A stretch of 64,000 bases of DNA. Origin: Microbacterium foliorum (GTDB taxonomy: Bacteria; Actinomycetota; Actinomycetes; Actinomycetales; Microbacteriaceae). This document shows positions 48,097 through 58,404 of the stretch, in pieces. The stretch spans positions 2,728,001 to 2,792,000 of the forward strand of contig NZ_CP041040.1 in assembly GCF_006385575.1 (NCBI RefSeq), read 5' to 3'. Below the pieces are notes generated by a model. It was not told the origin of the DNA and ran no database searches. It was given only the letters and a program-made list of their open reading frames with translations. The translations under genes and the position numbers were made by a program. Numbering within the stretch: the stretch's first letter is position 1; each line of letters starts with the position of its first letter.

Positions 48097-48121
48097 GTCG
48101 CTCCCGCGCCCGGCTGCAACG

Positions 48122-48165
48122 GCCGAGACCCCCTCGCATCCGCCCGGACACGAGGGGGTCTCGGC
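48122..48165. terminator. Two-way terminator between aspC and the convergent operon
   Basis: GCCGAGACCCCCTCG (48122-48136) pairs perfectly with 48151-48165, followed by GTTTC. It lies 25 bp past the aspC stop and 38 bp from the end of the VOC gene. Confidence 0.8.
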
Positions 48166-48203
48166 GTTTCGGTCGGGCCGAGCGAACCGAGCCCGGCCCG
48201 TGC

Positions 48204-48605
48204 TCACGCCTCGTCGTGGAATCCGATCAGCCAGCGGATGCCGTAGCGATCGATGACCGTACCGTCGTAGTCGCCCCAGGGGCGCTTCTGCAGCGCGTCG
48301 ATCACTCTGCCCTCCTTCGAGAGCTGGTCGAACCAGCTGGTCAGCGTCGACGCATCCGCCGTGCCGAGCAGCGAGAGGAACATCCCGCTCATCTGCACCG
48401 CGTCGTCATCGGCGCCGGCATCCGCACCCGCGAGCTCGACGGGCCCCGTGAGCTGTCCGTGTGCGATCGCATCCGCCGGCCCGTCGTGGCGCGCGGCACC
48501 GGCGTAGTCGAGCAGCTGGAGCTTCCCACCGAAGACCGACCGGTAGTGCTCCAGCGCTTCGGCTGCGTTCCCGGGAAACAGGAGGTAGGGGATCAGTCCG
48601 CTCAT
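48204..48605 (-). CDS. VOC/PhnB-like glyoxalase-superfamily protein
   Basis: This 133-aa protein has the YjdN/PhnB-type vicinal oxygen chelate fold: MSGLIPYLLFPGNAAEALEH at the start and the ending WGDYDGTVIDRYGIRWLIGF. Such proteins have no agreed function; the family is often called 3-demethylubiquinone-9 3-methyltransferase-like by old annotation. It lies 31 bp downstream of the adenylate-forming enzyme gene and may be the last gene of that transcription unit. Confidence 0.9.
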   Translation of the reverse strand: MSGLIPYLLFPGNAAEALEHYRSVFGGKLQLLDYAGAARHDGPADAIAHGQLTGPVELAGADAGADDDAVQMSGMFLSLLGTADASTLTSWFDQLSKEGRVIDALQKRPWGDYDGTVIDRYGIRWLIGFHDEA

Positions 48606-48636
48606 GCCGCGAGTGTACGGCGAACCGGCGACGTTG

Positions 48637-49998
48637 TCAGTCGGGCACGGCACTGCGGTAGCGCCGCGGCTTGCCTTCGCCGAGGTCGATCAGGCGCTCG
48701 ACCTGCCGCAGCTCGAACTCGACCCCGAGCAGCGCGCCCAGAGCCGAGCGGATGCCGGACTCGTCTCCGCCGACGATCACGGCGTGCACGCGACCGGCGG
48801 CATCCTGGTCGATCGACCACCCCTGCGCCCCGTGTGCCTGCAGATGCTGCGTGAGCTCGACGCAGGGCACGAGTGTGCCGTCGCCGGCCCGGAACCGCGT
48901 GTTCTCTCGCCCCTCGAGATCGGCGATCCCCACCGCCCCGCCGTCGAGGTGCACCAGGCGCCCGTAGTCGCCCGTGCGGTACCTCACCAGCGGCAGCAGA
49001 GGGTTCTCTCCCGCGGTCACGACGATCTCGCCCATCGCTCCCGGCGGCAGCGCGACCTCGCGTCGAGGATCCCACACCTCGACGTGCACGCGGCGATCGA
49101 GCACTCGGAACGGACCGTCGTCGATGCGCGCGGCGATCGGGCGCGTCTCGTGCAACCCGTACACGTCGACCACGGGGCACTCGAACGCCGCCTCGAGTCG
49201 TGCGCGCAATGCGGCCGACAGCGCCATCGCGCCGGAGAAGATCACGGCGGGATGCAGCACCGAGTCGAGCCCGGCGTCGAGCAGCTCGGCGAGGCTGGTC
49301 GGGTGCCCGCTGAGGATCTGCGGATCCGCCTCGGCCAGGAATCGGGAGCGGGCGCCGAGACCTCTCCACGACGTCGGATGCAGGTTGAGCCGCGCCATCG
49401 CCCGGTGCGCGAAGCTCGAGATCACCGACACGTAGGTGAAGGCCTGCCGCTGGAAGACGAGGTTCGCCACGGTCATCCGCTCGCCGTCGATCGTCACCGA
49501 GGCGCCCGCAGACGCCGCGAGCGCGACCAGCAGGTGGAAGCCGCGCGCGACCTCCTCGACGTCATCGGGGATGAGCAGCGCTGCACCGGTCGACCCGGAG
49601 CTCGTGCCGTGCAGCATCCGGGAGAGATCCGCATCGAGCGGAACGAACGCTGCGAGGTCGTCGACGAGGTCCGCCCGCGAGATCGTGGGGAAGTCATCGA
49701 GCGTGCAGCCAGTCGGCATCCCGCGGTAGCGCAGCGTGCGTCGTGCTGCGGCGAGATGGTCGGTCAGCCAGTCGTCGGTCGAGAGCGGATGCCGCACCCG
49801 CTGCACCTGTTCGGCGGTGAGGCGGTCGCCCGTGGCGTGCGTCCAGTGCGGGGCGTCGGGGTGCTCTCGCCAGTGGCTCAGCCGAGCACTGCCTGCGGCG
49901 TCGAGCGTCGGCCAGCGCTCGGCGTCGGAGAGCACTGCGGCCTCCCCCGGTGCGTATTCGGCGAGCACGAGCGCCCCTCGGAGGTCGGGGTCACTCAC
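48637..49998 (-). CDS. PaaK-type adenylate-forming enzyme of the MoxR/VWA cluster
   Basis: This 453-aa ANL-superfamily enzyme resembles phenylacetate-CoA ligase. It has the phosphate-binding loop HGTSSGSTGAALLIPDD, the motif VYGLHETRP, and YRTGDYGRL for ribose binding. The C-terminal lid is short (from about 345) and ends with GEGKPRRYRS, whose Lys may be the second-half catalytic residue. GTG 49998 overlaps the upstream gene by 8 bp, so translation is coupled. It may activate a small acid or modify a protein with AMP; there is no CoA-ligase pathway next to it, which makes the substrate a real question. Confidence 0.85.
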   Translation of the reverse strand: MSDPDLRGALVLAEYAPGEAAVLSDAERWPTLDAAGSARLSHWREHPDAPHWTHATGDRLTAEQVQRVRHPLSTDDWLTDHLAAARRTLRYRGMPTGCTLDDFPTISRADLVDDLAAFVPLDADLSRMLHGTSSGSTGAALLIPDDVEEVARGFHLLVALAASAGASVTIDGERMTVANLVFQRQAFTYVSVISSFAHRAMARLNLHPTSWRGLGARSRFLAEADPQILSGHPTSLAELLDAGLDSVLHPAVIFSGAMALSAALRARLEAAFECPVVDVYGLHETRPIAARIDDGPFRVLDRRVHVEVWDPRREVALPPGAMGEIVVTAGENPLLPLVRYRTGDYGRLVHLDGGAVGIADLEGRENTRFRAGDGTLVPCVELTQHLQAHGAQGWSIDQDAAGRVHAVIVGGDESGIRSALGALLGVEFELRQVERLIDLGEGKPRRYRSAVPD

Positions 49999-50599
49999 TG
50001 GAGTACCGCGCAGCCGCCTCCTTGCGGCGCGCCTCTGCGAGCTTGCGAGCGATCTCGGCCCTGTGCCGGTGTCCCTCGAACGCATCGGCGAGCGCCCGAT
50101 TGCGGGCGAGCGAGTCGCAGGCCGCCAGCAGTGAGGCGGCGGTCGCGGCATCCTCACCCGCCGGAAGGAACCCGCACCAGAGCAGGAAGGTGCGTGCCGC
50201 TTCAGTGCGCCGTTCATCGTCTGAGGTCCACTCCGACGGCGACGCGACCGGGGCGACGCGCAGTGCGAGCGCGTCGACGGCAAGGCCGGCCCACCCGCTC
50301 GCGAGCGCCGGCTCGAGCGGCTCGATGACGCCTTCGCTGGCGACGAGCCACAGTCCGATCGCGGCACCCTGGCGCACACGCGGGTCGTCGTCGAACCTCG
50401 ACGCGACGATCTGCCCACCCAGGACGTCTCCGGCGAGCGCTCGGAGCGAGATGCGCTCGTCGAGGAACTCCTGCGGGATGCGGGAGATCCGCCCGGCGAC
50501 GGACTCGAGTGACGGCCCCGGTCTCGCGCGAGCCCAGGCCTCGGCCTCGCCGTCTGAGCGCTCGCTCCAGGCGGCGAGCAGCGCCTCGGTGTCAGCCAT
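49991..50599 (-). CDS. Unknown helical protein of the MoxR/VWA cluster
   Basis: This 202-aa protein (MADTEALLAAWSERSDGEAE) is predicted to be almost wholly alpha-helical and contains segments such as DDPRVRQGAAIGLWLVASEG that look like a HEAT-type pair. The C-terminus is a charged helix (HRHRAEIARKLAEARRKEAA). No known family is recognised. The start overlaps the VWA gene stop by 8 bp (ATGGCTGA), and its stop overlaps the adenylate-forming gene, so it is a fixed member of the cluster, perhaps a scaffold. Confidence 0.75.
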   Translation of the reverse strand: MADTEALLAAWSERSDGEAEAWARARPGPSLESVAGRISRIPQEFLDERISLRALAGDVLGGQIVASRFDDDPRVRQGAAIGLWLVASEGVIEPLEPALASGWAGLAVDALALRVAPVASPSEWTSDDERRTEAARTFLLWCGFLPAGEDAATAASLLAACDSLARNRALADAFEGHRHRAEIARKLAEARRKEAAARYSSE

Positions 50600-52466
50600 G
50601 CAGCGCCGCCGCGAGTGCCGCGCACGCAGCGGGTGCCTCGGCCATCGTCCGGAGGTACACCACGTCGTAACCGTCGCGTTCTGCGAGTGTCGCGACCTGG
50701 TGTCGGGGGTCCATGAGCACGAGCGTACCCGTCGTGAGCACCTCGCGAACGGCCCTGGCGACGCCGGCGTACGGCTCATTGCCCACCCCGAACATCGACA
50801 CGAGCCCGTCATCCGACAGCACCACCACATGACGAGGTGCGTCTTCCCCTGCCGCAGGAAGACCGGCGTATCTGGCGGAGTAGAGGTCGAGCGGGAACGA
50901 CGTGGATCGCCCGAAGAACAGCGAGATCGCGGCGACGATCTCCGACGGATCGCGGCCGAAGCGCGGCATCCCCGCCACGTCGCCGGCTCCCGAGAAGCTG
51001 GTCACCCTGACCCGACCGCCGCCGCGGAGGATCGAGAGCGCGAGGATCGTTCCCGCGAGCACCGCGGGCGAGCCCTGCCGCGGATGCGTCATGGAACCCG
51101 ACGAGTCGATGTAGAGGTCGAGTTCGAGACTCGTCTCCTGCACGAGGGGTTCGTCATCGAGCTCGGAGCGCCGGCGGGTGGTGACGCCGGGGATCACGGT
51201 GCCCGAGCGCATCGTCAGCGGCCAGTCGAGGTCGGCGAGCGCATCGCCCACCTCCCACAGCTCGTCAGGACCGGGGATGCCGCCGATCGGCGTCGCGGGT
51301 GCAGGGCGCGTGTACGGGCGCACCCACCTGGCCGCCTCGTTGCGGTACCAGGCGGCGAGCACGGCATCCTCGCCGCTCTCGCTGTACAACGCGAGCGTCC
51401 GCGCGATCGTCAGACGCTGGCCGTCCTTTCGCGACCCCGCATCCGACACCTCTTCCGCGGCATCCTCGTCATCAGGGTCGAGCACCATGCCCGGATGCCG
51501 GGGCAGGTCGTCTCGCAGACGCTGGTCGGCGAGGATGCGACCGAGCTCCTCGGCCGTCGCCGGTGCGTCGTCGACACCGCATCCGCTGACCGGCTCTCGG
51601 GCGCCACTCTGAGCGGCCCCCTCCAGCTCGGCCAGGTACGGCGCGGCGATCACGCCGAATCGGGCGGCACCCGAGACCGGGTCGGTGCCGAAGGTGCGCA
51701 CGGTGTCGGCGATGAGCGCGGCGTCCACTCCGGGGTTGGTGGCGGTCGCGCCGGCGAGCTCGGCGGCCACCCGCGCACTCTCGGCCTGCGCCTCACGCAG
51801 CAGGCGCTCCTTTTCGCGGTGCTTCTCGGGAATCCGACTCAGCGGCACGAGGGAGTTCTGTGCGAGAGTCCGGGCCGGCCGCGGCGGCGGCTCGAGCGCG
51901 CACAGGGTGCCGGAGGGCAGCTGCCACAGCAGCTCGTATGCCCGGCAGTACACCCACCACAGCCGGTCGGTGCTTCCCTGGGGTGCCGGGTAGAGGGCAC
52001 GGCCGAGACGCACGATGCCGAGGTCGCGGGTGGAGGTGGCCGCGATCCCCGGCTCTGCGCGCTGCAGCTGCGCGAGGCGCGTGTTGACCAGCAGATCGCT
52101 CCACAGGTTCGACAGACGTCGTGCTCCCTCCCCCGGGTTCGAGTGCAGCGACACGGCGGCGATGGCCTTGGCCATCTGATGGTCGATCTTGAGCGCATCG
52201 ATCCGGGTACTGGGAGCGAGCACATGGTGCCCGATCTCGTGGGCGAACATGCTCCACAGCTCATCGGACAGGCCGCGCTCGGCGAGGTAGTGAGGGTCGA
52301 CGGTCACCGACGGCGGGAACGAGAACCAGGCCGGTGCGCCGTGCTCGTCGGCGGCTCCCGGGCGCACCGCCGGATCGTCGAGCCGCACCCGCCACAGAGC
52401 CAGCGCCCGCTCCCACGCCGCGCGGGCGTCGTCGCTGAGCGGCAGTCGATCGGCAGGAGCTTTCAC
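50592..52466 (-). CDS. Fused HExxH-domain and VWA-domain protein
   Basis: This 624-aa protein starts at GTG 52466 (MKAPADRLPLSDDARAAWER), overlapping the previous stop as GTGA. The N-terminal third carries a zinc-protease-like motif, MFAHEIGHHVLAPS, with HEIGH at residues 76-80. The C-terminal region from about residue 445 is a von Willebrand A domain with an intact MIDAS motif (DLYIDSSGSMTHP; Asp-x-Ser-x-Ser near 453) and later VVVLSDDGLVSMFG. VWA proteins are the usual partners of MoxR ATPases, and the MoxR gene is two genes upstream. Either the HEIGH part is a working peptidase, or a degenerate structural domain; downstream Glu ligand not identified. Confidence 0.85.
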   Translation of the reverse strand: MKAPADRLPLSDDARAAWERALALWRVRLDDPAVRPGAADEHGAPAWFSFPPSVTVDPHYLAERGLSDELWSMFAHEIGHHVLAPSTRIDALKIDHQMAKAIAAVSLHSNPGEGARRLSNLWSDLLVNTRLAQLQRAEPGIAATSTRDLGIVRLGRALYPAPQGSTDRLWWVYCRAYELLWQLPSGTLCALEPPPRPARTLAQNSLVPLSRIPEKHREKERLLREAQAESARVAAELAGATATNPGVDAALIADTVRTFGTDPVSGAARFGVIAAPYLAELEGAAQSGAREPVSGCGVDDAPATAEELGRILADQRLRDDLPRHPGMVLDPDDEDAAEEVSDAGSRKDGQRLTIARTLALYSESGEDAVLAAWYRNEAARWVRPYTRPAPATPIGGIPGPDELWEVGDALADLDWPLTMRSGTVIPGVTTRRRSELDDEPLVQETSLELDLYIDSSGSMTHPRQGSPAVLAGTILALSILRGGGRVRVTSFSGAGDVAGMPRFGRDPSEIVAAISLFFGRSTSFPLDLYSARYAGLPAAGEDAPRHVVVLSDDGLVSMFGVGNEPYAGVARAVREVLTTGTLVLMDPRHQVATLAERDGYDVVYLRTMAEAPAACAALAAALHG

Positions 52467-53137
52467 GCCTGATCCCTCACGTGCACCCACGCGAGATGCG
52501 TGTCCGGTCCGATGACGATGCTCACCCCGTCATCGCGGGAGTGCACCGTGCTCGGCGCCTCGGAGAGCACGGAGAGCCGCGCACCCCAGACATCGCTGTC
52601 GAGTCGCCACCACGAGCCCGCGACCAGGAGGGCGAAGGCTCCGGCATCCGCCAGGGTCTCGACGCGCTCGGGAGGCCGGATCCACGCTCCTCCGATTCCG
52701 CGGAACCCACCGACGGCGAGCACATACCCGCGCTGATCGACGCGGCCGGGCCACCAGAATCGATCCGTCTGCTGCCGGCGCCGGAACTCGTCGAGCACAT
52801 CGACTCCGACTCCGAGCGTCGCCGCGGCGGCCAGACGCTGCTCGGGGGTGTCGAGATGCCCGAGGCGAGCGAGTGCGTCATCGCGCAGACCGAGAGCACC
52901 CGAGCGCCACGCGGCGATCGCGACGAGATCGAGCGCCCGGTCGCGATCGGTCGCCGCTGCAGGATCCTGCTCCACTCCTGCGGCGAGCGCCCTGGCGAAC
53001 AGGAGCGGATCACCGTGAGCGCCACGCACCGAGGCCGACGCGAGCGCGGTGTCGAGCCCGGCGGCGGAGAGATCGGGCAGCTCTGCGGGAGGGAACGGCG
53101 CCGGCGCATTCGCCAGCTTCACGGGGACGCGATTCAC
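52463..53137 (-). CDS. Unknown Trp-rich protein between MoxR and VWA genes
   Basis: This 224-aa protein (GTG start at 53137, overlapping the MoxR stop as GTGA) belongs to no family I recognise. The first 110 residues are helical and Ala-rich (LAAGVEQDPAAATDRDRALD). The rest looks like beta structure with TDRFWWPGRVDQRGYVLAVG, LLVAGSWWRLDSDVWGARLS and a final VIGPDTHLAWVHVRDQA. Its fixed place between the AAA+ and VWA genes suggests it is a third subunit of the complex. Confidence 0.75.
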   Translation of the reverse strand: MNRVPVKLANAPAPFPPAELPDLSAAGLDTALASASVRGAHGDPLLFARALAAGVEQDPAAATDRDRALDLVAIAAWRSGALGLRDDALARLGHLDTPEQRLAAAATLGVGVDVLDEFRRRQQTDRFWWPGRVDQRGYVLAVGGFRGIGGAWIRPPERVETLADAGAFALLVAGSWWRLDSDVWGARLSVLSEAPSTVHSRDDGVSIVIGPDTHLAWVHVRDQA

Positions 53138-54702
53138 CCGCGCAGCTCCTGCCAGCGCACGTAGGCCGTGTACCGCTGATGCAGATACTTCAGCGCGATC
53201 ACGTCGTCGAAGTCGCGCCCGTAGAGCTTGCCCACCGTCGCGATCCGGCGCAGCTGGGCCTCGACGGTGGTGATGCGTCGAGACGCCTCGAGCGCCGGGA
53301 GGCCGTCGAGCCCGCGGTCGAACTCGGCGAGCAGGGCGGCGACCGCATCGTCGGCGTCGCGGCCGAGCGCGTCGTACTGGCGGCATGATTGCGTGAACAG
53401 GTCGGCCAGCCAGCTCACCGTGTCTGTGCTGAGCTCGCGCTCCGCCCCGACATCGAACCGGGGATGAGTGGCGTTCGGCAGCAGCTTGCCTCGGAGCACG
53501 AACGGCAGCACCGCCGCGACGTCATCGAGCTCGACCCTATCGGCGCCCCGGAACCACGCGATCGCCTTGGCGTAGATGATGAGCGTCTGCAGAGCACGCA
53601 CCGACAGGCCGTTGCGGGTCTGCGCGCCGAGGTCGATCTCGAGGTCGGCGCCGCTGTTCGCCTCGATCACCTCGCCGACCCGGCCGCCGGCCGTGGTCAC
53701 GACGTCTTTCGTGCGGTACTCGAAGCGGCGTCCGCCGTGCTGCACGAACTCGAAGTGGCTGAGGAAGAATCGCAGGCGCTCGCGCACGGCATCCGGAATC
53801 GGCACCGCGCGGATCTGCGCGCGCATCTCGGTCTGCTCGGCCGAATCGAACGTCAGCTCGGCGGGCACATGCTCTTCGGGCTTCTCCCCCGCCTCGACGC
53901 GGGTGATCAGCTCGTCGAAGAATCGGCTGTTGAATCCTGCCGCCTGCACCGTGACGTCCATCCGGTCGCGGAGGGCCTGGATGACGGGGAAGGTGCCGCC
54001 GCCCGCGTCGTCGTTGGCCGTGAAGAACCAGCTCTCCACCCCGCCGTCCGGCGCGGTGCGGCGCATCTGGTCGTGGCTCTCGACATACCCCTCGGCCACC
54101 ATCGTCAGCAGCGCCGACTGGGTCTTGGTCGGGATGCGGTTGTACTCGTCGATGATCTTGACGGGCAGCCCGAGCCACTCGCGCCAGGCGATGCGGATGT
54201 CGGTGAGACGCTCGGCGGCGACCAGGTCGCGCGGAAGCGGGATGCCGACGAGATCGCTGACCGTCAGCTGCGGCTGCCCCTGCTGCACGCTTCGCCGCAC
54301 ATCGTCGGAGGCGGTACCGGCGAGCACGCCCATGAGCACGGCGACGGTCGTCTTGCCTCGCCCCGGCCCACCGACGAGCAGGCACTTGCCGCCGACCGCG
54401 AAGGTGAGCAGCGGCACGAGGACGTTCGACGAGAACGACGCCTGCGTCGGGAGCGACACCGCGGCCCCGGCATCCCCCAGCCCGATCGACAGCGGCTCTG
54501 CGTGCGAGAACTCCATGTCGTAGTAGGGCGAGATCACCGCACGGTTGACGATCCAGTAGTAGACCTGACGCAGCTTCTCATCCAGCGGCACGGCAGTGCG
54601 CGCGGCCGGGCGGAAGAGATCTTCGGCTGTCAGAGACTCGACGCCGTGGCCGCTGCCGGGGTTCGTGGGTGATGCGGACACTCGGTTCCAGCGGTCGGGC
54701 AT
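53134..54702 (-). CDS. MoxR-type AAA+ ATPase
   Basis: This 522-aa ATPase has Walker A GGPGRGKTT (residues 111-119), Walker B VKIIDEYNRIP (181-191) and sensor 1 in SWFFTANDDAGGG, then FNSRFFDELITRVEAGE. It is longer than typical MoxR (about 330 aa) because of an N-terminal extension and a large C-terminal helical part after RVELDDVAAVLPFVLRGKLL. MoxR ATPases work with VWA proteins as chaperone-like or cofactor-inserting machines. ATG 54702 lies only 4 bp after nadR, with AGGATG 7 bases ahead, so the cluster is co-transcribed with NAD-salvage genes. Confidence 0.9.
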   Translation of the reverse strand: MPDRWNRVSASPTNPGSGHGVESLTAEDLFRPAARTAVPLDEKLRQVYYWIVNRAVISPYYDMEFSHAEPLSIGLGDAGAAVSLPTQASFSSNVLVPLLTFAVGGKCLLVGGPGRGKTTVAVLMGVLAGTASDDVRRSVQQGQPQLTVSDLVGIPLPRDLVAAERLTDIRIAWREWLGLPVKIIDEYNRIPTKTQSALLTMVAEGYVESHDQMRRTAPDGGVESWFFTANDDAGGGTFPVIQALRDRMDVTVQAAGFNSRFFDELITRVEAGEKPEEHVPAELTFDSAEQTEMRAQIRAVPIPDAVRERLRFFLSHFEFVQHGGRRFEYRTKDVVTTAGGRVGEVIEANSGADLEIDLGAQTRNGLSVRALQTLIIYAKAIAWFRGADRVELDDVAAVLPFVLRGKLLPNATHPRFDVGAERELSTDTVSWLADLFTQSCRQYDALGRDADDAVAALLAEFDRGLDGLPALEASRRITTVEAQLRRIATVGKLYGRDFDDVIALKYLHQRYTAYVRWQELRG

Positions 54703-54706
54703 GCGA

Positions 54707-55777
54707 TCATCCTAACGATGTCGATCGTGCGTCCTGCTGGAGCGCCCGCTGCTCGTCGAGAGGCCGCCCCTCGAGCGGAACAGCGAAGCGCAGATGCTCG
54801 ATGAGGAGAGGCTCGAGAGCGGATGCCGCGGCGTCGACCCGCGTCGGGACATCGCCGCGCACCTCGAGCCACGGCACGTCCTGCGCGGCGAGCACGTCGC
54901 GGAAGCGCTGCTGCATGTCGTGGCGGATGTGCTCGCCATCGCGCAGGCCGTCCTGCTCGAACGGGATCTCGTCGCCCGTGAGCACGTAGAGAAGCGGCGG
55001 GTGCGCGGCCGCCGCCTCATGCAGGCGCGGCGCCACCGCGCCGACATAGCGCTCGTGCCACAGGGCCGTCGCGAGCACGTCGGTGTCGCACACGAGCACC
55101 GGCACCGGCACCTGCCTGAGCGCCTGCTGCTCGAGCGCGATCTGCCGGTCGACGATGAGGTCGAACTCGTCGCTGCGCCACGGCGCGGTCAGCCCGCCGT
55201 CGCGGATCACGGAGTGCTCGCGGCCGTATTCGGGCACCCAGAGCGTGCCCAGACGATCGGCGAGTGCCTCGGCGAGGGTCGTCGACCCGGTGGATTCCGC
55301 GCCCAGCACCACGACGCGCGCGGTCAGCCACGCGCGCACGGCCGGTGCGAGCTCATGCCAGTTGCCGGCGACATCGGCACGGATCGCCGTACCGGAGACG
55401 GGATTGACCCGCCGCCCCTCGTCGATCTGCATCCAGCGCGCATCGAGGCGCCTGGCCAGCTCGCCGCCGTACGAGTCGCACGAGAACACCGTGTCGACAG
55501 GACCGTCGAGCAGGGAGGCGATAAGCGCCATGTGCTCGTCCCAGGCCGCCTCCGACTCGAAGTCGACCGGTGCATCGTCCATCGCTGCGACGACGCGCAC
55601 TCCCGGGTGCGACTCACGGATCCAGTCCGCTCGCACCGCCAACGGGATCGACTCGACCGATGCGCCCAGCACCTGCACCGTGACCCGGTCGCTCTCTCGC
55701 TGCGCCTGACGGATCAGGTGCGAATGACCGCTGTGGAAGGGATAGAACTTGCCGAGGACGAGGCCGTGTCCGCTCAT
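54707..55777 (-). CDS. nadR: NadR-type NMN adenylyltransferase / ribosylnicotinamide kinase
   Basis: This 356-aa bifunctional enzyme has the nucleotidyltransferase motif FYPFHSGHSHLI (HxGH at 15-18) and a C-terminal kinase domain beginning VVLGAESTGSTTLAEALADR. It should turn nicotinamide riboside into NMN and then NAD. The kinase P-loop reads GAESTGSTT, with Ser where GKS/GKT proteins have Lys; I believe actinobacterial NadR proteins often have this variant. The helix-turn-helix of enteric NadR is absent. pnuC is directly upstream, the expected partner. Confidence 0.93.
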   Translation of the reverse strand: MSGHGLVLGKFYPFHSGHSHLIRQAQRESDRVTVQVLGASVESIPLAVRADWIRESHPGVRVVAAMDDAPVDFESEAAWDEHMALIASLLDGPVDTVFSCDSYGGELARRLDARWMQIDEGRRVNPVSGTAIRADVAGNWHELAPAVRAWLTARVVVLGAESTGSTTLAEALADRLGTLWVPEYGREHSVIRDGGLTAPWRSDEFDLIVDRQIALEQQALRQVPVPVLVCDTDVLATALWHERYVGAVAPRLHEAAAAHPPLLYVLTGDEIPFEQDGLRDGEHIRHDMQQRFRDVLAAQDVPWLEVRGDVPTRVDAAASALEPLLIEHLRFAVPLEGRPLDEQRALQQDARSTSLG

Positions 55778-55787
55778 GCGCGTCGCC

Positions 55788-56399
55788 TCACCTTCGGGCG
55801 GGCGCCATGACCGCGGAGGTCTCTCGGTCGGCGGCGGCCGCCTGACTCCACGAGCGGAAGCCGATCACGCACAGGGCGATGAAGAGCACGTACAGCGCTG
55901 CGATGACCCAGAGCCCCGCGGCGATCGAGAGACCGACGAAGGCGATGTCGACCAGGATCCACACGAACCAGTTCTCGATCCACTTGCGGTTCAGCATGTA
56001 CTGCGCCACGAGACTCGCGGCGGTGGTCGCCGCATCGGCGATCGCGACCTGCGAGTCGGTGAACGTCATGAGGACCCACACCAGCACGGCCGTGCCGGCG
56101 ACTGCGGCGAGCGCCAGCCAGGGCCACGCGCGACGAGGCGTGTTCACGACGTAGGTGCGACTCTGCTCTGCGCCACGGGTCCACCGCCACCACCCGTGCA
56201 GTCCCATCAGCAGGTAGACGACCTGCAGCACCGAGGTCGCATAGAGTCCCGCGCCGATGAACACGACGAACAGCACCACATTGTTGGCGATGCCGATCGG
56301 GTAGTTCCAGACGTTGCGGCGGCCGGCGAGCCAGACGCAGATCGCGCCCGTGACGAAACCGAGAACCTGAGGCCACTCGGCCTGGAGCCACTCGAGCAC
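55788..56399 (-). CDS. pnuC: Nicotinamide riboside/mononucleotide transporter PnuC
   Basis: This 203-aa membrane protein has about seven helices and the PnuC signatures WNYPIGIANNVVLFVVFIGA, GLHGWWRWTRG and LMNRKWIENWFVWILVDI-type text (MLNRKWIENWFVWILVDIAF). It imports nicotinamide riboside by facilitated diffusion, trapped by NadR kinase. GTG 56399 lies 6 bp after the murB stop. It is read into nadR 10 bp later. Confidence 0.94.
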   Translation of the reverse strand: MLEWLQAEWPQVLGFVTGAICVWLAGRRNVWNYPIGIANNVVLFVVFIGAGLYATSVLQVVYLLMGLHGWWRWTRGAEQSRTYVVNTPRRAWPWLALAAVAGTAVLVWVLMTFTDSQVAIADAATTAASLVAQYMLNRKWIENWFVWILVDIAFVGLSIAAGLWVIAALYVLFIALCVIGFRSWSQAAAADRETSAVMAPARR

Positions 56400-56405
56400 G
56401 GGCCG

Positions 56406-57551
56406 CTACAGTTCGACGCCGAGCAGCACGGGCTCCGGCTGCAGCACGAGTCCGAACTCCGCGTGGACGCGGCTCTGGATGAAGCGGGCGAGCTCAGACA
56501 CCTCGGCCGCCGTGGCGCCGCCCCGGTTCGTGAGGGCGAGAGCGTGCTTGGTCGAGACCGATGCGCGTGACCTCGGCAGCTTGAAACCCTTGCGGATTCC
56601 GGCCTGCTCGATCAGCCAGGCTGCGCTCACCTTCACGTCTGGCGCCTCCGGCTTCGCGGCGGGCACGTAGCCTTCGTACGACGCGAGCGGGATCACCGTG
56701 ACGGTGTCGAGGTCGGGGGTCACCGGCCAGCGCGGGCACTCGGGCGGCAGCGCGCGGGCGACGACCTCGGGCACGATCGCATTCTGGAAGAACGAGCCGA
56801 CGCCATGCGTGTCGGGGTCGTTCTCGTCGAGCAGCATCCCCTTCGACGCGCGCGTGGCGAGGATCCGCTCGCGCACCCAGGTGAGCGGCACTGGGGCGTC
56901 CGAGTCGAGACCCAGCGCCCTGCGCAGCTGCTCGCCGCGGACGACGCGCTGCTCGGCGACGAGAAGATCGACCGTGACCGACAGGATGACGGCGCGGCGC
57001 TGTGGCACGCTGCCGTAGTGGTGCTTGAGCACAGAGGTTCGGAACCCGAGCCCGAGCTCGGATGCCGGAACGACCGACACCTCGCCCGTCGCCTCGTCGA
57101 TCAGCTCGACCTCGACGAGAGTCTCCTGGATCTCCTGACCGTAGGCACCGATGTTCTGCACGGGTGAGGCGCCGACGGTGCCGGGGATGCCGCTCATCGC
57201 CTCGAGCCCGGCATAGCCGTGCTCGACGGCGTAGGCGACGAGATCGTCCCAGCCGTGACCCGCCTGCACACGAAGCCGGATGCGTCCGGCGTGCGGCGAC
57301 GGTAGCTCCTCGATGCCTCGGGTGAGGATGCGGATGACGGTGCCCTCGAACGAGTCGTCACCGACGAACAGGTTGGAGCCACCGCCGAGGACGAACCACT
57401 CGTCACCGCGAGACCACACGTCGGTGAGCGCATCGATCAGTTCGGCGGAGGTCGACGCCTCGAGCATGCGCTCGGGGGCCCCGCCTGTGCGGAGGGTCGT
57501 CAGAGTCGCCAGCTCGAGCGGTTCGACCTCGTGCACCACGCCGTCACCCAT
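56406..57551 (-). CDS. murB: UDP-N-acetylmuramate dehydrogenase
   Basis: MurB (381 aa) is an FAD enzyme that reduces UDP-GlcNAc-enolpyruvate to UDP-MurNAc in peptidoglycan synthesis. The FAD-binding segment GGGSNLFVGDDSFEGTVIR and GLEAMSGIPGTVGASPVQNI, GAYGQEIQE are present, the catalytic Ser lies in GVGSFFQNAIVP, and it ends LALTNRGGATAAEVSELARF. ATG 57551 shares one base with the hadB-like stop. murB next to two dehydratase genes is common in actinobacteria. Confidence 0.97.
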   Translation of the reverse strand: MGDGVVHEVEPLELATLTTLRTGGAPERMLEASTSAELIDALTDVWSRGDEWFVLGGGSNLFVGDDSFEGTVIRILTRGIEELPSPHAGRIRLRVQAGHGWDDLVAYAVEHGYAGLEAMSGIPGTVGASPVQNIGAYGQEIQETLVEVELIDEATGEVSVVPASELGLGFRTSVLKHHYGSVPQRRAVILSVTVDLLVAEQRVVRGEQLRRALGLDSDAPVPLTWVRERILATRASKGMLLDENDPDTHGVGSFFQNAIVPEVVARALPPECPRWPVTPDLDTVTVIPLASYEGYVPAAKPEAPDVKVSAAWLIEQAGIRKGFKLPRSRASVSTKHALALTNRGGATAAEVSELARFIQSRVHAEFGLVLQPEPVLLGVEL

Positions 57552-57949
57552 CAGGCGGCGACGCGCAGCTGCGCCTTGACGAGCACCGTCGTCTCGCCGA
57601 ACGTGACCTTGAGGTCGATGCGCGTCGATTCCTCGTCGACGGCGCCGACGGTGGCGGCGACGTGAAGGTCGGCTCCGTCTGCGGGGTCGACCACGACCGG
57701 CTTGGTGAATCGCACGCCGTAGTCGAGGATCCGCGTGCCCGGCTCGAGAGCCGCGACGACCACCGACGAGGCGATGCCCATCGTGAGCATGCCGTGCGCG
57801 AGGACGCCCGGAAGGCCCACCTCTGCGGCGATGTCGTCACGGTAGTGGATCGGGTTGAAGTCGCCCGATGCTCCGGCGTAGCGCACGAGCGACTCGCGGG
57901 TGATGTGCACCGTGCGCTCTGCGACGATGTCTCCGACAGCGAACGGCAT
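57551..57949 (-). CDS. MaoC-like (R)-hydratase/dehydratase, HadB type
   Basis: This 132-aa hotdog protein has the MaoC catalytic pair in GASGDFNPIHYRDDIAAEVG (Asp and His) and LPGVLAHGMLTMGI. In mycobacteria HadB supplies the catalytic subunit of the FAS-II hydroxyacyl-ACP dehydratase; in relatives without mycolic acids the role is unsure. It is coupled to the preceding gene by TGATG. Confidence 0.92.
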   Translation of the reverse strand: MPFAVGDIVAERTVHITRESLVRYAGASGDFNPIHYRDDIAAEVGLPGVLAHGMLTMGIASSVVVAALEPGTRILDYGVRFTKPVVVDPADGADLHVAATVGAVDEESTRIDLKVTFGETTVLVKAQLRVAA

Positions 57950-58404
57950 CACTCTGCTCCTTCTTCGGCGCCGACGAGCAGCACGCTCGTGGCGGTGACG
58001 ACGTGCTCGCCGGCGGCATCCGTGATCTCGGCTGCGCTGGTGATCATGGCGTTGCCGCCCATCATGCGGATGGCGGTCACACGCAGCTTTCCGGTGAGCT
58101 CGTCGCCCGCGACGATCGGTCGGGAGTAGGTGAACTTCTGCTCGGCGTGGATGGTGCGCGCCAGCACGATGCCCGAGTCGGGCTCGGCGAGCAACTGCTG
58201 CAGCGTGAGGTCTTGGATGACCATCGCGAAGGTCGGCGGCGCCACGACGTCGGCGAAACCGGCCGCACGCGCGGCCTCGACGTCGGTGTGCTGCGGGGCG
58301 TCCGCGAAGACGGCGCGCGCGAACTCGCGCACCTTCTCGCGACCGACGAGGTAGGGGGACGTCGGCGGGAACTCCCGGCCGAGAAGATCTTGGTTCACTG
58401 CCAC
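57949..58404 (-). CDS. Hotdog dehydratase subunit, HadA type
   Basis: This 151-aa FAS1-type MaoC N-terminal domain protein has YLVGREKVREFARAVFADAP, APPTFAMVIQDL and IHAEQKFTYSRPIVAGDELT. The catalytic Asp-His pair of HadB is missing, as in HadA, so it is the substrate-binding partner of its neighbour. First gene of the ten-gene run that ends with the adenylate-forming enzyme. Confidence 0.92.
   Translation of the reverse strand: MAVNQDLLGREFPPTSPYLVGREKVREFARAVFADAPQHTDVEAARAAGFADVVAPPTFAMVIQDLTLQQLLAEPDSGIVLARTIHAEQKFTYSRPIVAGDELTGKLRVTAIRMMGGNAMITSAAEITDAAGEHVVTATSVLLVGAEEGAE

What the first reader, a model, noticed from the sequence alone, without database searches (positions are those of the whole stretch)
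48637..54702. Five-gene MoxR / VWA-peptidase / adenylate-forming system with two unknown subunits
Five genes overlap one another by 4-8 bp (GTGA, GTGA, ATGGCTGA, GTGAGTGA): a long MoxR AAA+ ATPase, a 224-aa Trp-rich unknown, a HEIGH plus VWA fusion, a 202-aa helical unknown, and a PaaK-type adenylating enzyme. Known: MoxR ATPases pair with VWA proteins, and MoxR-VWA multi-gene systems with extra unknown subunits have been proposed from comparative genomics to act in conflict or stress. Inference: the tight coupling means a single complex, in which the AAA+/VWA part remodels or inspects a target and the ANL enzyme adds AMP or an acyl group. A dedicated ANL enzyme inside such a cluster is the part I have not met.
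Basis: partly seen in the sequence, partly recalled or inferred. Interest (0 to 1): 0.85.

Follow-up and report, generated by a model that had tools for sequence, protein, structure and literature searches.

The report
AAA+ machine with adenylating enzyme
Five neighbouring bacterial genes encode what looks like an ATP-driven protein-remodelling machine that travels with its own adenylate-forming enzyme, and the genomes that carry it also carry a gene for making NAD from nicotinamide riboside, a combination for which I found no description.

Summary
In detail: five minus-strand ORFs of a Microbacterium chromosome overlap by 4, 4, 8 and 8 bp. The order MoxR, unknown A, zincin-VWA, unknown B, PaaK-like ANL recurs in 12 further Microbacterium loci, 11 other family genomes and 2 genomes of another actinobacterial class. 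ATPase, zincin, MIDAS and most ANL motifs are intact; unknowns A and B match no family or clear fold.

Two additions. (1) PnuC-NadR lies directly upstream; NadR was found in 14 of 14 cluster-bearing genomes (unlinked in 8) against 8 of 351 without the cluster. (2) Unknown B ends in a conserved tail whose last residue is Glu in 24 of 24, a candidate MIDAS ligand.

The signatures tested for published MoxR-vWA conflict systems are not met, and a conflict role has no positive evidence. Best reading: a NorQD/CbbQO-like activase for its own adenylating enzyme, tied to NAD salvage. Complex, client and substrate are inferred; the NadR statistics are uncorrected for phylogeny and lack a control gene.

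The parts
53134..54702 (-). MoxR-type AAA+ ATPase, 522 aa
   Evidence: AAA_lid_2 above its cut-off (34.8 against 22.7 bits); AAA_3 just below its cut-off (25.9 against 27); Walker A GGPGRGKT, Walker B DE, N230, R247, R369 in 19 of 19
52463..53137 (-). Unknown A, 224 aa: helical N-terminal half, beta C-terminal half, Trp-rich
   Evidence: No Pfam, NCBIfam or PADLOC family; model pLDDT 92.9
50592..52466 (-). Zincin (HExxH) plus VWA protein, 624 aa
   Evidence: HEIGHH and complete MIDAS in 24 of 24; Pfam only weak: Peptidase_M48 in 10 and VWA_2 in 8 of 24 members, best E 0.004 and 0.032
52224..52241 (-). HEIGHH motif
   Evidence: Sequence; HExxH in 24 of 24
51093..51107 (-). MIDAS DSSGS motif
   Evidence: Sequence; 24 of 24, with T530 and D560
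49991..50599 (-). Unknown B, 202 aa, helical with a long C-terminal helix
   Evidence: Model pLDDT 87.9; no family above its cut-off
49994..50020 (-). Conserved C-terminal tail EAAARYSSE of unknown B
   Evidence: Last residue Glu in 24 of 24 and in L103
48637..49998 (-). PaaK-like ANL (adenylate-forming) enzyme, 453 aa
   Evidence: PF00501 at 32 bits against a cut-off of 29.9; best PDB relative phenylacetate-CoA ligase 2y4o, E 1.4e-16
48661..48681 (-). GEGKPRR motif with the presumed catalytic Lys of the ANL enzyme
   Evidence: Lys in 18 of 19; in the other (L034) a Lys lies one residue off in the alignment
54707..55777 (-). NadR (NMN adenylyltransferase / ribosylnicotinamide kinase), associated gene
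   Evidence: PF13521 and PF01467; co-occurrence
55788..56399 (-). PnuC, nicotinamide riboside/mononucleotide transporter, associated gene
   Evidence: PF04973, E 1.7e-50; precedes NadR in 17 of 17 loci with NadR linked to the five genes

Best explanation
A dedicated AAA+ activase for an adenylate-forming enzyme, coupled to nicotinamide riboside (NR) salvage. Shown by sequence: the five genes are one evolutionary unit, and the ATPase, zincin, MIDAS and core ANL motifs are intact. Inferred: MoxR forms a ring; the VWA protein docks on it and holds its target through the MIDAS; unknowns A and B are scaffold or adaptor subunits, B's C-terminal Glu being the acidic MIDAS ligand; ATP-driven cycles remodel (activate or reset) the ANL enzyme or a B-ANL sub-complex, as NorQD does for nitric oxide reductase and CbbQO for Rubisco. 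The ANL then makes an acyl- or nucleotidyl-adenylate in a pathway that needs NAD, NMN or NR supplied by PnuC-NadR. The HExxH domain may process the target or only bind zinc. The ANL substrate is not identified.
For: Same five-gene order in 26 loci: the window, 12 Microbacterium, 11 other family genomes, 2 of another class. MoxR and ANL found in the same 12 of 299 family genomes. Catalytic motifs conserved. ANL is the only recognised enzyme apart from the machine's own ATPase and zincin that is kept at every locus. NadR in 14 of 14 cluster-bearing genomes, unlinked in 8, against 8 of 351 cluster-less ones. NorQD precedent: MIDAS mutants still bind NorQ but the target stays inactive, and acidic residues of NorB are the proposed contact (PMC9976466, passages).
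Against: No interaction, activity or structure of the complex was tested. The HExxH domain has no place in the NorQD model. The ANL lacks the Asp-Asp that follows GR in phenylacetate-CoA ligase and is diverged in its N-terminal half, so its chemistry is uncertain. NadR also occurs without the cluster (8 of 351), and its link may reflect hitch-hiking or shared ecology; no rarity-matched control gene was run.
Confidence: 0.38

Rival explanations
1. Target-modification machine: the AAA+/VWA part captures and opens a target protein, the zincin trims it, and the ANL enzyme adenylylates or acylates the target or a small molecule carried by the complex.
For: Active-looking HExxH in 24 of 24 and MIDAS in 24 of 24; ANL always beside the machine; the positions aligned with the PaaK Asp-Asp are never Asp in 19 sequences, which may mean an acceptor other than CoA (inference).
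Against: No target gene is conserved beside the unit except PnuC-NadR in part of the loci; no known ANL enzyme is recalled to modify proteins in this way.
Confidence: 0.25
2. Conflict (anti-phage or anti-competitor) system of the MoxR-vWA ternary kind, with the ANL enzyme as effector and NadR-PnuC restoring NAD.
For: Patchy distribution (12 of 299 family genomes), block-like presence or absence, and a fast-evolving subunit (unknown A, median identity 36% against 72% for MoxR).
Against: The MoxR motifs WxhapG/PsWRxa of the VMAP systems and the GXXXTAKS P-loop often seen in two others are absent; no effector or PADLOC family; neighbours look like housekeeping genes; nothing found in viral contigs and only one distant partial plasmid hit.
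Confidence: 0.12
3. NAD-salvage control module: the machine acts on PnuC or NadR themselves (assembly, activation or turnover), and the ANL enzyme processes a pyridine carboxylate such as nicotinate.
For: NadR in 14 of 14 cluster-bearing genomes although unlinked in 8; gaps of 4-23 bp between NadR and MoxR in 17 linked loci.
Against: PnuC-NadR also occurs without the cluster (G204 and G314); linked and unlinked NadRs are of different types (60-71% against 35-48% identity to the window's), so a single tuned contact is unlikely.
Confidence: 0.17
4. Loose operon: five genes without a joint function that happen to be co-transcribed and co-transferred.
For: Patchy presence and block-like gain or loss.
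Against: The order is kept across two classes at about 34% ANL identity; in 299 family genomes none was found with only one of MoxR and ANL.
Confidence: 0.05

Closest known systems
NorQ/NorD, CbbQ/CbbO, CoxD/CoxE, RavA/ViaA (MoxR-VWA chaperone pairs)
   Same: MoxR ATPase plus VWA partner with complete MIDAS; in several of them the genes lie beside the target enzyme's genes (NorQD: PMC9976466, passages; the others partly recalled)
   Different: Here two extra subunits, an HExxH domain on the VWA protein, and an ANL enzyme in place of a metalloenzyme or Rubisco
MoxR-vWA ternary conflict systems (VMAP, iSTAND, FtsH, beta-propeller; Kaur et al. 2020, PMC7159879)
   Same: MoxR-vWA core with additional conserved subunits of unknown fold and patchy distribution
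   Different: Tested MoxR motifs absent and no third-component family recognised; the words acyl, adenylat, CoA ligase do not occur in that paper's main text
PaaK-type phenylacetate-CoA ligases (2y4o, 2y27, 4r1l; PaaK-like 6siw)
   Same: ANL fold family and core motifs; best PDB match E 1.4e-16
   Different: 38.7 bits against the PaaK model's cut-off of 646.3; diverged N-terminal half; Asp-Asp after GR not kept
Two-gene MoxR-VWA pair of family f60 (L035-L038)
   Same: MoxR (27-31% identity) and a VWA protein at the equivalent place
   Different: QLLHY instead of HExxH in 4 of 4; no ANL, unknown A or unknown B found in stretches reaching 171 to 7,413 bases beyond the VWA gene

Membership tests
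MoxR AAA+ ATPase with VWA partner | AAA+ motifs and AAA_lid_2, with a VWA/MIDAS protein encoded beside it | tested here: met
   AAA_lid_2 34.8 bits, cut-off 22.7; motifs 19 of 19 and MIDAS 24 of 24
VMAP ternary system (Kaur et al.) | MoxR N-terminal motifs WxhapG and PsWRxa | tested here: not met
   No P-x-W-R in the window's MoxR; W....G only at residues 173 and 517, not N-terminal (motifs)
[quoted passage not shown]
   The protein ends 171 residues after the first MIDAS Asp, which leaves no room beyond a vWA domain in my judgement; no fold prediction of this protein was made
Beta-propeller / FtsH ternary systems (Kaur et al.) | MoxR P-loop of the form GXXXTAKS (often, not always) | tested here: not met
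   P-loop is GGPGRGKT
FtsH or iSTAND ternary systems (Kaur et al.) | FtsH or iSTAND gene in the operon | tested here: not met
   Pfam scans of the five proteins and neighbours show no such family at the cut-offs used; one of 24 VWA members had a weak FtsH-ternary-domain fvmX3 hit, E 0.064
ANL superfamily | Core motifs: P-loop, YG-x-x-E, YRTGD, GR, C-terminal Lys | tested here: met
   S134, G135, L282, E284, T285, R339-T342, D344, G363, R364 in 19 of 19; Lys in 18 of 19 plus one shifted
Phenylacetate-CoA ligase PaaK | NCBIfam TIGR02155 curated cut-off (646.3 bits) | tested here: not met
   38.7 bits
Phenylacetate-CoA ligase PaaK | Activity on phenylacetate and CoA | not testable with these tools
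   Needs an enzyme assay
Zincin metallopeptidase | HExxH motif | tested here: met
   24 of 24
Zincin metallopeptidase | Membership of a described family | tested here: inconclusive
   Peptidase_M48 in 10 of 24 members, best E 0.004; not in the window's own protein
NadR / PnuC | Nucleotidyltransferase and kinase domains (NadR); NMN_transporter family (PnuC) | tested here: met
   PF01467, PF13521 and PF04973 above their cut-offs; the kinase P-loop reads STGSTT or STGTTT, not STGKT, in all but one of the 25 aligned NadRs

The most novel reading that the evidence does not exclude
A protein-tagging or tail-processing system built on an ANL enzyme: unknown B, with its conserved C-terminal tail and invariant last Glu, is the substrate whose carboxylate the ANL enzyme adenylates, while the AAA+/VWA-zincin part loads, unfolds or releases the conjugate. 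This would be a division of labour like E1/JAB/AAA+ or Pup/PafA/Mpa but with unrelated proteins, and PnuC-NadR would supply NAD, NMN or NR as cofactor or acceptor.
Probability: 0.06. Interest if true: 0.95.

Novelty: new variant of a known kind. Interest (0 to 1): 0.67.

Why it matters
Few MoxR-VWA machines have a known client. Here a small operon keeps the same adenylating enzyme beside the machine across two actinobacterial classes, and every cluster-bearing genome examined also has NadR. That makes the question of what this machine acts on directly testable with one enzyme assay and one deletion. If right, it adds adenylate-forming enzymes to the activities controlled by AAA+/MIDAS machines and ties one of them to NAD salvage.

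Tried and rejected

In G204, whose NadR resembles the linked type, a gene that looks like an MFS transporter by eye follows NadR; no cluster gene was found in the 20-kb stretch. I considered that the NadR P-loop Lys-to-Ser/Thr change marked this system; unlinked and cluster-less NadRs share it, so it was dropped. I considered that the conserved end of unknown B only reflects the overlap with the ANL start; the Glu is also kept in 10 aligned loci where, with the starts my script chose, the genes do not overlap. Foreign base composition: the seven-gene block is 70.6% G+C against 68.6% for the rest, inside the range of equal windows (67.1-70.8%), so no sign of recent import. Distance matrices of the five genes and NadR correlate at r 0.86-0.96, but no housekeeping tree was set against them.

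Sensitivity limits: the genome search scores only a few candidates per genome, so absences mean 'not found at that sensitivity'. One search found the VWA protein in 1 of 296 genomes of the class.

Rows left out. Of the 25 loci then in hand (window, L005-L016, L034, L039-L049) A1 omitted L006, L009, L011, L040, L041, L044; A3 omitted L006, L007, L009, L011, L015, L040; A2 and A4 omitted L040. One search took 22 loci (not L006, L011, L044) and then dropped L034 (n=21, or 15 with NadR). A5 used 48 of the 92 hits. In one search the unknown A length of L044 (526 aa), the MoxR length of L006 (487 aa) and the ANL length of L011 (contig end) are artefacts of start choice, a frame change or a contig end. 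The unknown A reference used in scans and A5 lacked its last residue.
Full report
What is there. On the minus strand of a Microbacterium chromosome (window = G000:C1:2728001-2792000; genus judged from the named relatives) five ORFs overlap by 4, 4, 8 and 8 bp. Upstream on the same strand lie NadR (4 bp before MoxR), PnuC (10 bp before NadR) and MurB (6 bp before PnuC). Downstream is a small glyoxalase-family gene, then an aminotransferase on the other strand.

Is it a unit? The VWA protein led to 12 contigs, 11 labelled Microbacterium and one Microbacteriaceae. All 12 carry the five genes in the same order, the ANL of L011 being cut by the contig end. MoxR at E <= 1e-30 was found in 12 of 299 genomes of the family, in 6 of 85 genera. 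ANL at E <= 1e-15 was found in exactly the same 12 of 299, at the adjacent place. The 11 besides the window's all carry the five genes in order, with overlaps or short gaps at most junctions; gaps above 50 bp occur at a few. In a phylum-wide draw of 396 genomes MoxR reached E <= 1e-20 in 6: the window's own, G731 and 4 of family f60. G731 and G1130 (the 2 of 66 genomes of G731's class with MoxR) carry all five in order, with ANL at about 34% and unknown A recognisable (best BLASTP E 2e-10 against the 23 other unknown A sequences). The f60 genomes have a MoxR-VWA pair whose VWA protein reads QLLHY where HExxH would be (4 of 4); in L037 only 171 bases beyond the VWA gene were visible.

A larger association. 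PnuC-NadR precedes the five genes in all 12 loci and in 5 of the 11 other family loci. In 7 of those 12 (L005-L011) MurB is followed directly by the seven genes, and in 6 (L005-L010) the glyoxalase-family gene and the aminotransferase follow; in L014 and L016 the aminotransferase lies between MurB and PnuC, and in L012, L013 and L015 neither was seen. Of 7 cluster-less Microbacterium, G168 and G106 have MurB, glyoxalase-family gene and aminotransferase with nothing of the seven between; the other five stretches also lack all seven, with less alike surroundings or a contig end. This is consistent with gain or loss of the seven as a block.

NadR was found in 19 of 299 family genomes: all 12 with the cluster and 7 of 287 without, of which only G204 and G314 match over the full length. 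In G731's class it was found in 3 of 66: both cluster genomes plus G818. Together 14 of 14 with the cluster and 8 of 351 without. In one search, which named 19 genomes, 11 of 11 with the cluster and 0 of 8 without had NadR; G731 had it and 4 f60 genomes did not. In 8 cluster-bearing genomes of three genera (g162, g191, g314) NadR lies elsewhere, on another contig or at least 300 kb away, and is of a more distant type (43-48% and 35-36%). Fisher p for the family is 6e-17; at genus level 6e-8, and 0.0019 after removing the four genera with linked genes; for the second class 0.0014. None is corrected for phylogeny, the hypothesis arose from the linked loci, and no control gene was run.

Anatomy. 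MoxR: GGPGRGKT, DE, N230, R247 and R369 in 19 of 19. VWA protein: HExxH and the MIDAS residues in 24 of 24. ANL: S134, G135, E284, YRT, D344 and GR in 19 of 19; Lys of GEGKPRR in 18 of 19, shifted in the other. Unknown B: last residue Glu in 24 of 24 (all) and in L103. The two ANL positions that align with Asp-Asp after GR in phenylacetate-CoA ligase are never Asp in 19 sequences; that this may mean an acceptor other than CoA is inference from recalled knowledge of the ANL hinge. Unknown A is predicted (pLDDT 92.9) as a helical half plus a beta domain, unknown B (87.9) as helices with a long last helix; neither has a significant fold match.

How it probably works. In NorQD the VWA MIDAS is proposed to hold acidic residues of the target, and ring ATPase activity is needed to activate it (PMC9976466, passages seen). 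Kaur et al. describe capture and release for MoxR-vWA pairs in general (PMC7159879, section 8 read). Apart from the machine's own ATPase and zincin, the only recognised enzyme kept at every locus is the ANL, so I take it, or a B-ANL sub-complex, as the client. The acidic C-terminus of B is a natural candidate for the MIDAS ligand. The presence of NadR in every cluster-bearing genome suggests that the pathway needs NAD, NMN or NR. Client, contact and substrate are inference.

Known or new. The published MoxR-vWA ternary systems are marked by VMAP, iSTAND, FtsH or beta-propeller components and by MoxR motifs (passages); the motifs tested are absent and no such partner family was recognised. In paper searches no paper held PnuC, NadR and MoxR, MoxR and PnuC, or MoxR and adenylate-forming. 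One paper held MoxR with phenylacetate-CoA ligase and one MoxR, vWA and acyl-CoA synthetase; the passages seen concern separate genes. The first search with AMP-dependent synthetase listed 20 of 30 papers, none of those listed with that term. The library holds open-licence papers only. I file it as a new variant of a known kind: a MoxR-VWA machine with its own adenylating enzyme and an NR-salvage association.

Noticed in passing
window 52463-53137; hits P0005, P0014 and others: Public records name relatives of unknown A 'potassium transporter Kef', although the protein is a soluble-looking 224-aa helical-plus-beta model with no family match; probably a mis-annotation.
   Followed up: partly
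window 54707-55777 and aligned NadRs: The kinase-domain P-loop of NadR reads STGSTT or STGTTT instead of STGKT in all but one of 25 aligned sequences, with or without the cluster.
   Followed up: partly
L006:4838-6354; L044:5016-6352: MoxR of L006 and ANL of L044 match in two different reading frames, so a frame change or an assembly error.
   Followed up: no
L036:3411-6366: Next to the f60 MoxR-VWA pair of G754, ORFs repeat the peptides FNPRLPRGRR and FQSTPPAWEAT, the look of a translated CRISPR array (recalled look, not tested).
   Followed up: no
L103 and L034, unknown A: In the second class unknown A has about 100 extra residues (335 aa in L034) and is the least conserved of the five between the two genomes (72% against 75-96%).
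   Followed up: no
window 48612-48640: The only promoter-like match on 48100-58000 lies at the end of the ANL gene, just before the glyoxalase-family gene; 0.3 are expected by chance.
   Followed up: no
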